Shown: positions 8,242 through 17,076 of the stretch, piece by piece
Numbering within the stretch: the stretch's first letter is position 1
Layout of the letters: each line of letters opens with the position of its first letter
Source: Akkermansia muciniphila
Lineage (GTDB): Bacteria > Verrucomicrobiota > Verrucomicrobiia > Verrucomicrobiales > DEV007
Assembly: GCA_945883495.1 (NCBI GenBank)
Contig: CAMCXS010000020.1
Coordinates: 1-64,000, forward strand
Reading direction: 5' to 3'
DNA length: 64,000 nt
Translations under genes and position numbers: made by a program
The notes under the pieces: model-generated
What the model saw: only the letters and a program-made list of their open reading frames with translations
Databases searched by the model: none
Told to the model about the DNA's origin: nothing

Positions 8242-9023
8242 ATGCCGCCTTCTTTGAAGAGTTAGTCGATCAGGCGAAGGATGAGGGACTGGATTTCCTC
8301 TTGATCGGCGGAAACGCGGTAAATGCGTATGGTTACCAACGGACCACGTTGGACGCCGATCTTCTCATTCGCGCCGCGGACCTCGATCGCTGGCGCGCAT
8401 TTTGGGAGACGCGCGGCTATCGATGCATCCACCTGACCGACGCATTCTGCCAGTTCACCAGCGCAGGGCCCGAGGAGCGTTTCCCTGTCGATCTGATGAT
8501 GGTTTCCGATGGCACTTTCGAGAAACTCGCGGCCGAGCGCCAAACCAAATCCTTCGGAGGCGCCGACTTGGAGGTTCCCGCGCCGTTGCATTTGATCGCG
8601 TTGAAGCTTCACGCGCTCCGTAATGACGCCAGGGCGATCCTTGGCAAGGACTTGCTCGATATCGTCGGTCTGGTTCGCGCTTGTGGGCTTGATCCGACGA
8701 GTGTAGAGTTTCAGTCCGTTCTCGATCGTTATGCCACGGAAAGCGTCCGCCGCCAAGTCATCGAGCAACTTGAAGGCAAGGCCGACGGCGAATTCGGACT
8801 CGACGCCGAAACCCAAGGCGACGCCGAAACCCAAGGCGACGCCGAAACCCAAAGCGACGCCGAAACCCAAAGCGACGCCGAAACCCAAAGCGACGCCGAA
8901 ACCCAAAGCGACGCCGAAACCCAAAGCGACGCCGAAACTCAAGGCGACGCCGAAACTCAAGGCGACGCCGAAACTCAAGGCCACGGCGAAGCTCAAGGCC
9001 CAGCATCTGCTGAGCCGAGCTGA
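8238..9023 (+). CDS. Nucleotidyltransferase-fold protein (AbiEii/MNT-like) with acidic repeat tail
   Basis: The protein has 261 residues. Residues 1-190 look like a polymerase-beta-type nucleotidyltransferase: IGGNAVNAYG (23-32) gives the GG/N motif and TTLDADLL the catalytic Asp39-x-Asp41, followed by a helical LIALKLHAL block. Such folds occur in toxin-antitoxin and resistance proteins. From about residue 191 the sequence becomes ten DAETQ(G/S) hexapeptides plus one degenerate copy, coming from an 18-bp tandem repeat, and this tail is unusual for the family. ATG 8238 overlaps the preceding stop. A second frame with a protein-like C-terminus crosses the same repeat (8731-9198), so the acidic tail may be a by-product of repeat expansion. 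Confidence 0.7.
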   Translation: MNAAFFEELVDQAKDEGLDFLLIGGNAVNAYGYQRTTLDADLLIRAADLDRWRAFWETRGYRCIHLTDAFCQFTSAGPEERFPVDLMMVSDGTFEKLAAERQTKSFGGADLEVPAPLHLIALKLHALRNDARAILGKDLLDIVGLVRACGLDPTSVEFQSVLDRYATESVRRQVIEQLEGKADGEFGLDAETQGDAETQGDAETQSDAETQSDAETQSDAETQSDAETQSDAETQGDAETQGDAETQGHGEAQGPASAEPS

Positions 9024-13393: not shown

Positions 13394-15160
13394 GTGCCCG
13401 GGTTCACGTTGGAGGCCTCGTTTGTCGTGGATGGCTTGCGCCGGTTTGTGCAGGACGAGTTTGCCTGCCAGCGCAAGAACTTCGGCCTGCAGATCTCCCA
13501 GCCGCGCGCGGAGCGGGTGGAACGGGGGACTTGTTTGGATGGCTTGACGTTTCGCGGGATTGAGGACGGCTTGGCGATGTTCCAACACCAGGGGAACGAC
13601 TCTCGCTTGCGGGAGAGCGATCTGGTTCTGCTGCGCCCTCAAGATGCAGGTGGCGACGCGGACGGGGAGCTGGCGTCGATTTACCGGGAGGAGCGCGACA
13701 CCATTTGGCTGGCGCGAGATAGCGGGTTCCGGCAAAACCTGACGGGCGGCGGGCTCTGGATGCTCGATGAGGCGTTTCTCGATTTGGAACGGCACTACTT
13801 GGAGGCCATGGAGCGGCTACCCGGAACGGAGATTGGCCAGGAGCGGATCTTGCCCTTGCTGATGGGGACGGCGGAACCGGCGCTGGATGAGGAGGATTAT
13901 GGCGGCACGCATGGCGAGTTGCTTGCTTCCGAAATGCCATGGGAAGACATGCAGCTTGAGGCGATCGCTGGGTGCGTCGCCGCCGATCATTGTTATTTGG
14001 TGCAAGGGCCACCGGGCACTGGCAAGACGCGGGTCTTGGCGCAAGTGGTGAAACGCTTGGTAGAGGAGGGGAGGCGGGTTTTGGTCACCTCGTTCACCCA
14101 TCGCGCCATCGATCACGCGCTCGGCGCCGTGGCGCGCGAAGTGGCGGACCGCGAGGCGATTGCCCGGATTGGACCGCCCGTGCATCGCCGGGATGAGCCG
14201 TTCGACCGGTTTGAGTATTTCAGCGAAAGCCCGTTGGGAAGGCGGGCCGGGCACCTGGGCTGGGTGGTGGCGGCGACGCCATTCGCGCTGCGCAAACGCC
14301 TGGCCGGGGTGGAATTCGACACGATCGTGTTTGATGAGGCGGGGCAGATCACGACTCCGCTGGCCATCATGGCGATGCTAACGGGGCGGATCTACCTCTT
14401 TTTCGGGGATCAGCAGCAGCTTGGGCCGGTGGTGGTGAGCCGTTCCCGGCGGGAAACGAAGGAGATTGGCATTTTTCAAGCGTTGCGGGCCAAGCAGATC
14501 CCCGGGACGATGCTCAATGTCACCTACCGGATGAACCAAACTCTGAGCCATTGGCCGAGCGAGTCGTTTTACGGGGGCGAACTCAGCTCCGCGCCGGGCG
14601 TGGCCGCGAGCCGGTTGCGTTGCGCGCCGCCCGCGGATCTGCCTGGGTGGCAAAGGGAGGCGCTCGATCCGGCCAATCCCTTGGTTTGGGTGCGCTTTGC
14701 CGGCCGGAAGAGCCGCACCACGAACGATGCGGAGAGCGGCGCGGCGGCGGAGCTGATCCTGCGGCTTGTCCAAGCTGGGATGGATCCGGAACAACTCGCG
14801 GTGGTGACACCGTATCGACGGCAGGCTCGCAAAGTGCGCCGCCGCTTGGAGACTCTCAGCCCGGGGCGATCGTGGTCTGGTTGCGTGATTGATACGGTGG
14901 AACGGATGCAGGGGCAGGAACGCGAGGTGATTTTGGTGACCTTTTGCGCCTCCCAGCCAGAGTTTGTGGAACAGCAGGCGGAATTCCTCGTTGATCCGCG
15001 GCGGCTCAACGTGTCGGCTACTCGGGCGCGAACCAAGCTGATTCTGCTGGCCAGTGAAAGTCTGCCAGCGTTTGATCCGGTGGACGCGGATCTGGAAGAG
15101 GAGGTGGTGCTGCTGCGCTCCCTGTTCGCGGCGGCGGTGGAGGTCTCGCATCCCGGATGA
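13394..15160 (+). CDS. Superfamily 1B helicase, DNA2/Upf1-like (AAA_11/AAA_12)
   Basis: DNA/RNA helicase of 588 residues. The first ~190 residues are a divergent accessory domain. Motif I is GPPGTGKT (about 204-211), Ia SFTHRAIDHAL, II FDEAGQ (about 313-318), III GDQQQLGP, IV TYRMN with SFYGG, V RMQGQE (about 504-509) and VI SATRARTKLILL. This order is diagnostic of the DNA2/NAM7/Upf1 group. There is no obvious nuclease domain. GTG 13394 is used; no good ribosome-binding site is seen. The stop overlaps the ATG of the next helicase (ATGA), a strong sign that the two products work together. Confidence 0.88.
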   Translation: MPGFTLEASFVVDGLRRFVQDEFACQRKNFGLQISQPRAERVERGTCLDGLTFRGIEDGLAMFQHQGNDSRLRESDLVLLRPQDAGGDADGELASIYREERDTIWLARDSGFRQNLTGGGLWMLDEAFLDLERHYLEAMERLPGTEIGQERILPLLMGTAEPALDEEDYGGTHGELLASEMPWEDMQLEAIAGCVAADHCYLVQGPPGTGKTRVLAQVVKRLVEEGRRVLVTSFTHRAIDHALGAVAREVADREAIARIGPPVHRRDEPFDRFEYFSESPLGRRAGHLGWVVAATPFALRKRLAGVEFDTIVFDEAGQITTPLAIMAMLTGRIYLFFGDQQQLGPVVVSRSRRETKEIGIFQALRAKQIPGTMLNVTYRMNQTLSHWPSESFYGGELSSAPGVAASRLRCAPPADLPGWQREALDPANPLVWVRFAGRKSRTTNDAESGAAAELILRLVQAGMDPEQLAVVTPYRRQARKVRRRLETLSPGRSWSGCVIDTVERMQGQEREVILVTFCASQPEFVEQQAEFLVDPRRLNVSATRARTKLILLASESLPAFDPVDADLEEEVVLLRSLFAAAVEVSHPG

Positions 15161-17076
15161 ACACGCCGGAGATTGTCATCAAGACCCGTAGCAAGCTCGG
15201 CCAGTTGGCGGCGCATGGCATTGCCGCCAGCCGGGCCACCGGAATATCCCATGGTCCAGACGCGGTCCTCTTTGCGGCCGATGGCCGGGTTTGGCTGGTG
15301 GCGATTTGGTCCGGCGAAGACATCCAGCCCTCGCTTCTGCCGGAGGGAACGGACTGCGAAGCGATGGTCGCCCGGCTCTTGGCGTGGCGGGAGCGCGTGG
15401 CCACGGAAGCTGAGGTGGAACAGCCCGCGCTATTGGTCGTGGCGCCGTTGCTGGCGGCCGGGGAGACGCTCCCTGGCGTCCGTTTGCTCGGCCGGAACGA
15501 GTGTGCCCGGACTGCGATGTTGGCTCAGGCGATTCTCGACAGTCCCACGCCCTCGTTTTCGGCGGAAGGACAAGCGATTTGGCGAGCGGCGGCGGTGCCC
15601 GAGGTGAAGATCGATGCCGCAAAGCGGCGCTCCCGGACGATTCGGGTGCCCGATGTGTTGGTGGCGCCGATGCTGCTCGACTTTAAGCAGGAACGTTGCG
15701 TGAGACTGGATGTGGAGGATGAAGCCCTCGCCCGGCCGTTGGCTTCGGATTTCCGCCTGCGGATCATCACGGGCGTGGCGGGCTGTGGCAAGACGTTGGT
15801 GTTGATGCATCGGGCGCGCTTGTTGGCGACGTTGTTTCCGGGCAAACGGATTGTTCTGGTGAGCTACAATCGTCCGCTGACGAATGATTTGAAGCGACGT
15901 CTGAGCCGTTACCCGGAAGCGGCGCGGGTGGAGTGCGTCACGTTCAATCAATGGTTGCACCAGATCAGGCCGCCCAGGGGGGACTTACTGGGCAACTTCG
16001 AATTGCGGCGTTGGGTGGAAGAAGAGAGGCGGTCGCTACCGGAGCTGGCCAAGCCATCGGTGGATTGGATCATCGAGGAGCTGCACTGGATGATGGATCA
16101 GGGGCTCGCTGGACCTGAGTATCTGACGGCGGCGCGCAAGGGCAGGCGAACCCGGATCACTCCGGGGCAGCGGGAAGGAATGTGGCAACTCTTGCGGAGC
16201 TTCCGGGCGTTTTTGCGGGCGAGCGGCCGTGCGGACTGGTCGGAATGGCCGTTATCAGTTCTGGAGGAAGCGCCGGAGACGATTCGGCGGCAACCGATGG
16301 ATCATCTCCTGATTGACGAAGCCCAGTTTTTCGCGCCAGTCTGGATTGAGCTACTCAAGATGGGCTTGCGGCCCGGTGGCCACGTCTTCCTCTGCGCGGA
16401 TCCGACCCAGGGCTTTCTGCGGCGGGGCACCTCGTGGAGCAGCCTGGGAATCGAGGCACGAAGCCGGTCGTTGCGGCTGGAGCAACCGTATCGAAGCACG
16501 AGGGCGATTCTTGAGTTTGCCCGGGAGTTTTACCGTAGCCGCTTGCCGGAAGATGATGAGCCGCTCAATCTTCCCGAACCGGCGGCGATGGAGCAGCTGG
16601 AGCCCGGCGTGCCGCCTCAGGTGCAGGCGGGCGGGTCTGGCCAAGAACAAATGGAACGGGTGGCCCGGGAGCTGGTGGATCTGCGCGGCCATGGCGTTTC
16701 TCTGGAGCACGTCTTGATTCTGGTCGCGGGACGGGCGGTGCCGGAGTCGGCCCTGGTGCAATACCTGGCCCAGCGGCTTGGGGCAGGTGCCGTGGTTTCC
16801 GTCAAGGATCGCGATGTGCCGGTGGGCGGCAACGGACCTGCTGGGGTCGCGCACTTGATGGCGGCGACCGGCTTGGAGCGGCCGATCGTCTTTTTGCTGA
16901 TGCTCGATGAGTTGGCGGAAGAGGAGAACAATCCGTTGCTCACGGCGGAGGAACGGGCGGAGAAGGTTCAGGCACACACCCGGCAGATGTACGTGGGAAT
17001 GACCCGGGCCATGGAGCGGCTCGTGATCTACGCTGGGCATCCCCGGTGGCGGGGGGCGTTTCCGGACGCCGGATAA
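15157..17076 (+). CDS. UvrD-like superfamily 1A helicase with uncharacterised N-terminal domain
   Basis: Helicase-like ATPase of 639 residues. Residues about 1-150 form a small alpha/beta domain (GPDAVLFAADGRVWLVAIW, QPALLVVAPLL) that may be a degenerate nuclease-related (NERD-like) fold; this is tentative. Motif I is GVAGCGKT (about 206-213), Ia SYNRPL, II IDEAQ (about 384-388), III CADPTQGFLRRG, IV EQPYRST, and VI QMYVGMTRAMERLVIY near residue 610. Such compact UvrD proteins act in repair, recombination or defence. Start ATG 15157 overlaps the stop of the DNA2-like helicase gene, forming a two-helicase operon. Confidence 0.85.
   Translation: MNTPEIVIKTRSKLGQLAAHGIAASRATGISHGPDAVLFAADGRVWLVAIWSGEDIQPSLLPEGTDCEAMVARLLAWRERVATEAEVEQPALLVVAPLLAAGETLPGVRLLGRNECARTAMLAQAILDSPTPSFSAEGQAIWRAAAVPEVKIDAAKRRSRTIRVPDVLVAPMLLDFKQERCVRLDVEDEALARPLASDFRLRIITGVAGCGKTLVLMHRARLLATLFPGKRIVLVSYNRPLTNDLKRRLSRYPEAARVECVTFNQWLHQIRPPRGDLLGNFELRRWVEEERRSLPELAKPSVDWIIEELHWMMDQGLAGPEYLTAARKGRRTRITPGQREGMWQLLRSFRAFLRASGRADWSEWPLSVLEEAPETIRRQPMDHLLIDEAQFFAPVWIELLKMGLRPGGHVFLCADPTQGFLRRGTSWSSLGIEARSRSLRLEQPYRSTRAILEFAREFYRSRLPEDDEPLNLPEPAAMEQLEPGVPPQVQAGGSGQEQMERVARELVDLRGHGVSLEHVLILVAGRAVPESALVQYLAQRLGAGAVVSVKDRDVPVGGNGPAGVAHLMAATGLERPIVFLLMLDELAEEENNPLLTAEERAEKVQAHTRQMYVGMTRAMERLVIYAGHPRWRGAFPDAG

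What the first reader, a model, noticed from the sequence alone, without database searches (positions are those of the whole stretch)
13394..17076. Translation-coupled DNA2-like and UvrD-like helicase pair
Two SF1 helicases of different clades overlap by ATGA, and the second has an uncharacterised N-terminal domain that may be a degenerate nuclease fold. Helicase pairs occur in DNA repair and in antiphage systems; this arrangement does not match a system I can name. An Lhr-like helicase and a nucleotidyltransferase lie just upstream.
Basis: partly seen in the sequence, partly recalled or inferred. Interest (0 to 1): 0.58.

Follow-up and report, generated by a model that had tools for sequence, protein, structure and literature searches.

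The report
Mobile twin-helicase pair with dead nuclease
Two neighbouring genes encode two different DNA-motor proteins that have travelled and evolved together across several groups of bacteria, the second carrying a nuclease part that has lost its cutting residues; it may be a new kind of bacterial genome-defence or repair machine, but its role is unproven.

Summary
In detail: helA (13394-15160) and helB (15157-17076) overlap by ATGA. HelA is a nuclease-less Dna2/UPF1-type SF1 helicase; its first ~180 residues are the stalk and beta-barrel of Dna2, not a nuclease. HelB is a UvrD-type SF1 helicase whose first ~150 residues are related to the NERD (PD-(D/E)XK) nuclease domain, with the catalytic E-x-K lost in 21 of 21 paired copies but present in 5 of 5 unpaired NERD-UvrD relatives. 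Motor residues are kept. The pair is patchy (7 of 288 genomes of the phylum; the same 7 hold strong copies of both genes, adjacent), co-diversifies (tree-distance r = 0.85), occurs in three phyla and on Vibrio plasmids, and no flanking gene is shared across its loci: a mobile two-gene module, not a core operon. The Lhr neighbour is incidental. Defence link: striking at a few sites (between Gabija and Septu; beside a type I R-M locus), absent at most chromosomal sites and not above a small control. Best reading: a nuclease-free two-motor helicase machine, probably of opposite polarity, somewhat more likely for genome defence than for repair. I found no description of the pair.

The parts
13394..15160 (+). 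helA: Dna2/UPF1-type SF1 helicase, 588 aa, GTG start, no nuclease domain
   Evidence: AlphaFold pLDDT 89.7; Foldseek best 5ean/5eaw Dna2, E 8e-37 and 3e-34, TMq 0.74-0.76; motor motifs intact in 20 of 20 paired copies
13394..13945 (+). HelA residues ~1-184: stalk helix (2-35), beta-barrel (47-126) and further stalk helices as in Dna2/IGHMBP2; no nuclease
15157..17076 (+). helB: UvrD-type SF1 helicase, 639 aa, ATG start overlapping the helA stop (ATGA)
   Evidence: UvrD fold Z 26.5 over residues 185-639, 425 aligned, rmsd 4.7; motor motifs intact in 20 of 20, except motif VI missing from one truncated copy
15157..15606 (+). HelB residues ~1-150: degenerate NERD-type PD-(D/E)XK nuclease domain
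15157..15160 (+). ATGA overlap (translational coupling inferred)
   Evidence: distance -13 to +24 nt in 20 loci

Best explanation
HelA and HelB are the two subunits of one mobile, nuclease-free helicase machine. Shown: they are adjacent, co-inherited, co-diversifying genes of probably one origin; both motors keep their ATPase motifs; HelA lacks the Dna2 nuclease; HelB keeps a NERD-type nuclease domain whose catalytic residues are gone. Inferred: they bind each other; HelA moves 5'->3' (as Dna2/UPF1-type SF1B enzymes do) and HelB 3'->5' (as UvrD-type SF1A enzymes do), so that a HelA-HelB complex can pull on both strands of one duplex in the same direction, as RecD and RecB do; the dead NERD domain serves as scaffold or as DNA-end and fork sensor instead of a cutter. 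Inferred role, less certain: an accessory defence function that loads on exposed ends or forks of incoming or replicating foreign DNA and unwinds or strips replication intermediates, leaving any cutting to other enzymes.
For: Co-occurrence: 7 of 7 phylum genomes with a strong HelA hold a strong HelB next to it; no other of the 288 is better than E 5e-76 (HelA) or 1e-54 (HelB). Mirror trees: r = 0.853 over 20 pairs, 0 of 5000 permutations reach it. All paired HelAs form one clade (support 0.958) that holds one unpaired member, G023. HelB groups with intact NERD-UvrD helicases (support 0.997 and 0.999). Nuclease residues lost in 21 of 21, motors kept in 20 of 20. HelA fold: Dna2 without its nuclease. 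Defence islands: between Gabija (GajA 4e-217, GajB 1.5e-266) and Septu (PtuA 1.5e-148, PtuB 1e-93) on pOCN014; type I R-M, HNH and YhcG-type nuclease in G206; SoFic in G237; relaxase and zeta toxin in G273. Precedents for opposite-polarity machines: human DNA2 with BLM/WRN, and RecB with RecD (PMC5030094, abstract and passages).
Against: No complex, polarity or unwinding was shown. Most chromosomal loci have ordinary neighbours, and PADLOC hits (E <= 1e-30) near 11 chromosomal pairs came from 2 loci (40 of 42 families assigned), against one R-M locus among 9 control regions: no enrichment. The Vibrio contexts come from a plasmid collection, where mobile and defence genes are expected. Monophyly of paired HelBs is weak on the motor alone (0.323; 0.918 with all columns). 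One HelA (G023) has no HelB at its locus.
Confidence: 0.42

Rival explanations
1. The same two-motor machine, but for DNA repair or replication restart of the host: it processes ends, flaps or stalled forks and is simply an optional repair gene pair that moves horizontally.
For: HelA is closest in fold to Dna2. Most chromosomal neighbours are housekeeping genes. The unpaired HelA of G023 lies next to a PriA-like C-terminus, and a SWIM/SNF2-type protein follows the pair in L078 (both my reading of the sequences). The control shows no defence enrichment.
Against: Patchy (7 of 288) and on plasmids; flanks not conserved; SOS-type boxes (CTG-N10-CAG) upstream in only 2 of 15 loci examined, one with an AT-rich core 258 bases upstream.
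Confidence: 0.3
2. The pair works on RNA or on RNA-DNA hybrids.
For: IGHMBP2 and UPF1 rank just below Dna2 for HelA; SLFN11/14 and HelD are among the fold matches of HelB's motor.
Against: The best matches are DNA enzymes (Dna2, UvrD), and HelB's closest sequence relatives carry NERD nuclease domains.
Confidence: 0.13
3. The machine recruits a separate nuclease in place of the lost NERD activity, so that the net effect is DNA degradation.
For: A distant HelA relative overlaps a Cas4-like nuclease ORF (L067, Cas_Cas4 1.8e-6); in Gabija the helicase GajB promotes the activity of the nuclease GajA (PMC10952713, passage).
Against: No third gene is shared across the pair loci.
Confidence: 0.1
4. 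A chance neighbourhood of two independent helicases.
For: One unpaired HelA inside the paired clade (G023).
Against: Distance, co-occurrence and mirror trees.
Confidence: 0.03

Closest known systems
NERD-UvrD helicases (PADLOC C3a187 'NERD+UvrD'; Pfam NERD PF08378)
   Same: HelB's motor and N-terminal domain are homologous; best PADLOC hit 8.3e-29; same clade, support 0.997 and 0.999
   Different: HelB has lost the E-x-K and the GE of NERD, has a longer stretch between motifs Ia and II (alignment A3), and is encoded with HelA
Dna2 nuclease-helicase
   Same: HelA: stalk, beta-barrel and motor
   Different: no nuclease domain; the gene partner is a UvrD-type motor
human DNA2 with BLM or WRN; RecBCD
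   Same: a 5'->3' motor (Dna2, RecD) works with a 3'->5' motor (PMC5030094, passages)
   Different: here neither protein has an active nuclease and there is no RecC-like third gene; BLM and WRN are SF2 helicases (recalled)
Gabija (GajAB)
   Same: a UvrD-type helicase as one of two coupled genes; a Gabija locus lies beside the pair on pOCN014
   Different: no GajA; HelB hits GajB models only at 9e-9, against 1.5e-266 for a true GajB
Mokosh (MkoA/MkoB)
   Same: HelA's motor matches the helicase part of MkoA (2.4e-54)
   Different: no MkoA N-terminal part (588 aa against a model of 1112 positions) and no PLD partner

Membership tests
Gabija | GajA (OLD-type ATPase-nuclease) encoded with the helicase | tested here: not met
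   HelB's partner is an SF1 helicase; no GajA model among the listed PADLOC hits of the four window proteins scanned
Gabija | the helicase belongs to GajB | tested here: not met
   best GajB model 9.3e-9, far behind C3a187 8.3e-29
Mokosh | MkoA-length protein with extra N-terminal part | tested here: not met
   HelA has 588 aa; its best stretch matches MkoA positions 773-1073 of 1112
Mokosh | PLD-like MkoB partner (type I) | tested here: not met
   no PLD domain in the window neighbours scanned; no gene other than HelA and HelB is shared across pair loci
Dna2 | stalk, beta-barrel and SF1B motor | tested here: met
Dna2 | RecB-like nuclease domain in the same chain | tested here: not met
   residues 1-184 are stalk helices and barrel
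NERD-UvrD helicase | UvrD motor with homologous N-terminal domain | tested here: met
NERD-UvrD helicase | catalytic PD-(D/E)XK residues of NERD | tested here: not met
   0 of 21 paired, 5 of 5 unpaired; Pfam NERD matched 4 of 20 members of A3, the window's HelB not among them
RecBCD-type dual-motor enzyme | two SF1 motors of opposite polarity on one duplex | not testable with these tools
   inferred from family only
RecBCD-type dual-motor enzyme | active nuclease | tested here: not met
antiphage defence system | location in defence islands above background | tested here: inconclusive
   clear islands at a few sites; 2 of 11 chromosomal loci against one R-M locus in 9 controls
antiphage defence system | protection against phage | not testable with these tools
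   needs an experiment

The most novel reading that the evidence does not exclude
HelAB is an undescribed antiphage or anti-plasmid system that works without any nuclease: two opposed SF1 motors of one complex, guided by a dead NERD domain, seize foreign replication forks or ends and destroy them by unwinding and protein stripping alone. Pairing with HelA and loss of the nuclease happened once, and the module has since spread over at least three phyla.
Probability: 0.27. Interest if true: 0.78.

Novelty: new variant of a known kind. Interest (0 to 1): 0.5.

Why it matters
Many helicase-bearing defence systems act through a nuclease. A conserved, mobile pair in which the nuclease was lost while two motors were kept would show that unwinding itself can be the weapon or the signal, and would give a small two-protein model of a dual-motor enzyme. 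If it is a repair module instead, it shows a Dna2-type and a UvrD-type motor being exchanged together between phyla. Either way the plasmid copies are now annotated only as 'AAA domain', 'DEAD/DEAH box' or 'UvrD-helicase domain' proteins.

Tried and rejected
Rejected: nuclease in HelA 1-190. Rejected: a functional link with the upstream Lhr, which is on another contig in G002; the nucleotidyltransferase is weak and was not followed. Rejected: membership of Gabija or Mokosh. Not supported: a phage-borne module; scans of viral contigs with the HelA alignment gave 12 loci, none with a helB, and scans with the HelB alignment and with a Vibrio HelA confirmed none; 3 of 50,697 phage records had a partial HelA match. 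SOS-type boxes upstream: 2 of 15 loci, no shared one; no promoter signal above chance on the + strand of the pair. An empty site in the genus could not be shown: G001 (81% complete) lacks the DUF3050 gene and Lhr too.

A first mirror-tree run (r = 0.362) used a wrong frame for HelA of L078; corrected (r = 0.853). The 20-pair set leaves out L039, L069, L070, L084 (cut by contig ends or split) and L210 (HelA with two in-frame stops). The unpaired NERD set (5; four from the same family, one from the same order) leaves out one fragment, L076, which also shows VIEVK, and L020/L028, which lack the N-terminus. The control for defence genes left out two regions (L215, L217), because they had been drawn from contigs with a helicase hit, and one (L224) gave no genes; genes were called by a simple script of my own, and 2 of 42 matched families could not be assigned to a locus. 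Literature: searches found no description of this pair; only open-licence PMC papers are held.
Full report
WHAT IS THERE. The window holds helA at 13394-15160 (GTG start, 588 aa) and helB at 15157-17076 (ATG start, 639 aa) on the + strand, overlapping by ATGA. HelA carries AAA_11 and AAA_12 and its best solved relative by sequence is DNA2. HelB carries weak UvrD domains. The window is contig C20 of an unnamed 6.46 Mb draft genome; the named relatives L078 (Verrucomicrobiaceae, HelA 60% identical) and L080 (Persicirhabdus) point to Verrucomicrobiota (inference).

HELA. The AlphaFold model (mean pLDDT 89.7) shows a stalk helix (2-35), a beta-barrel (47-126), further stalk helices and the two motor domains. 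Foldseek ranks Dna2 first (5ean, E 8e-37; TM-score by query length 0.74-0.76 for 5ean and 5eaw), then IGHMBP2 and UPF1. There is no nuclease in residues 1-190. A distant relative lies next to a nuclease: on a Persicobacter plasmid an overlapping upstream ORF has a Cas4 domain (1.8e-6). HelA thus looks like Dna2 without its nuclease.

HELB. The motor (185-639) has the UvrD fold (2is4_A: Z 26.5, 425 aligned, rmsd 4.7). The first ~150 residues form helix-strand-strand-strand-helix-strand elements in the order of PD-(D/E)XK nucleases (order recalled; model, pLDDT of blocks 69-92). Profile-profile comparison of 21 paired HelB N-termini with 5 unpaired NERD-UvrD helicases of related genomes gives probability 96.1% and E 3e-9 over 62 columns. 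In the unpaired ones the catalytic motif reads PDF...GxLxIE(V/D)K or PDF...GLLxLEVK; the E-x-K is present in 5 of 5 of these and in register in 0 of 21 paired ones (a regular-expression hit in L073 is out of register). In the window the stretch reads PDAVLFAADGRVWLVAIW. In a separate alignment of 20 full-length pairs the E position and the K position never hold E and K, and the D position varies between D, H, E and P. By contrast the motor residues checked are kept: HelB motifs I-VI in 20 of 20 (motif VI in 19; the pOCN014 copy is truncated), HelA motifs I-VI in 20 of 20, with R or K at one motif VI position.

ONE MODULE. Among 57 relatives 10 have a strong HelA (E <= 3e-93) and 9 of these have HelB directly downstream (one cut by a contig end); the tenth, G023, has HelA alone at its locus. 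Among 288 genomes of the phylum 7 have a strong HelA (E <= 5e-113) and exactly the same 7 have a strong HelB (E <= 9e-140), adjacent; the next-best values are 5e-76 and 1e-54 (G000 is in both surveys). In the species collection 7 of the 9 best HelA loci have HelB next to it: two Verrucomicrobiota, an Anaerolineales MAG, three Massilia, one Comamonadaceae; the two without (L083, L086) are a Chloroflexi and a Prolixibacteraceae MAG. Four plasmid records of three distinct Vibrio plasmids carry both genes. Gene-to-gene distances run from -13 to +24 nt. Distances in the HelA and HelB trees correlate at r = 0.853 (20 pairs; 0 of 5000 permutations). All paired HelAs form one clade (support 0.958) with only the G023 copy unpaired inside it, which reads as loss of HelB. 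Paired HelBs group with intact NERD-UvrD helicases (0.997 and 0.999) and form their own clade with support 0.918 on all columns but only 0.323 on the motor alone. The simplest history is one pairing event and one loss of nuclease activity, followed by joint spread.

MOBILE AND ACCESSORY. In an all-against-all comparison of genes around 14 pair loci HelA and HelB were the only ones shared across the set; other matches were between near relatives (for example Massilia L082 and L085, or the DUF3050 gene in the window and L068) or within broad families such as sulfatases. The Lhr helicase upstream in the window lies on another contig in G002. Some copies look broken: two stops in HelA of G284 and two in HelB of G025, a truncated HelB on pOCN014.

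DEFENCE LINK. On pOCN014 the pair sits between a complete Gabija and a complete Septu system. On pVPTW011 it follows an HNH protein like type IV restriction enzymes (2e-22), with an AbiP-like gene downstream (2e-7), on a record that begins with an integrase and a VapE gene. In G206 it lies beside a type I R-M locus, an HNH nuclease, a Schlafen AlbA_2 protein and a YhcG-type nuclease; in G237 beside SoFic; in G273 between a TrwC relaxase and a zeta toxin. A HipA gene is near it in G022. But most other loci, the window among them, have ordinary neighbours. A small control was run: 100 genes around 11 chromosomal pairs against 105 genes of 9 control regions of the same genomes. PADLOC families at E <= 1e-30 came from two of the 11 loci (40 of 42 families assignable to G206 and G237), and in the controls only from R-M genes (one methylase and one restriction subunit). 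So there is no enrichment on chromosomes at this sample size, and the plasmid cases are a biased sample. I treat defence as a good lead, not as a result.

MECHANISM. By family rules (recalled) HelA should move 5'->3' and HelB 3'->5'. Two such motors in one complex can drive along one duplex on opposite strands, as RecD and RecB do; human DNA2 with BLM or WRN is described as a heterodimeric machine, and nuclease-deficient DNA2 as a processive helicase (PMC5030094, abstract and passages). A sensor role of a helicase in a defence complex is described for Hachiman (PMC12278908, summary and passages), and inactivated nuclease domains are reported in other defence helicases (PMC12458937, passages). 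From this I infer a nuclease-free two-motor machine with the dead NERD domain as scaffold or sensor. Whether it attacks foreign DNA or tends the host's own is open; I give the first a modest edge because the pair is rare, mobile, sometimes broken and sits in clear islands at several sites.

NOVELTY. No PADLOC, NCBIfam or Pfam model describes the pair, and seven literature searches found no description (open-licence PMC only). Both parts belong to known superfamilies, so I rate it a new variant of a known kind.

Noticed in passing
window 8801-8999: An 18-base tandem repeat (11 copies, 96% match) lies inside the nucleotidyltransferase-like ORF; two frames stay open through it (DAETQG-like and PKATPK-like repeats).
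   Followed up: no
L012, L013, L014, L016 and L197-L201, L203, L204, L206, L207: UvrD-type helicases with an N-terminal domain that looks RelE-like (my reading) are common in relatives and form a clade of their own beside HelB; [quoted passage not shown]
   Followed up: partly
L067:6719-9791: On a Persicobacter plasmid a Cas4-like nuclease ORF overlaps a HelA-like helicase ORF, like a Dna2 split in two.
   Followed up: partly
L072:2438-5155: G023 keeps HelA without HelB, next to the C-terminal part of a PriA-like gene; its intact NERD-UvrD fragment is elsewhere (L076), near a relaxase-like ORF.
   Followed up: partly
L064:16716-18506: HelB on pOCN014 is truncated (596 aa, motif VI missing) although it sits between Gabija and Septu loci.
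   Followed up: no
L158:7638-11830: A viral contig carries a distant solo HelA relative (602 aa) near an ORF that reads like a YqaJ-type nuclease (my reading).
   Followed up: no
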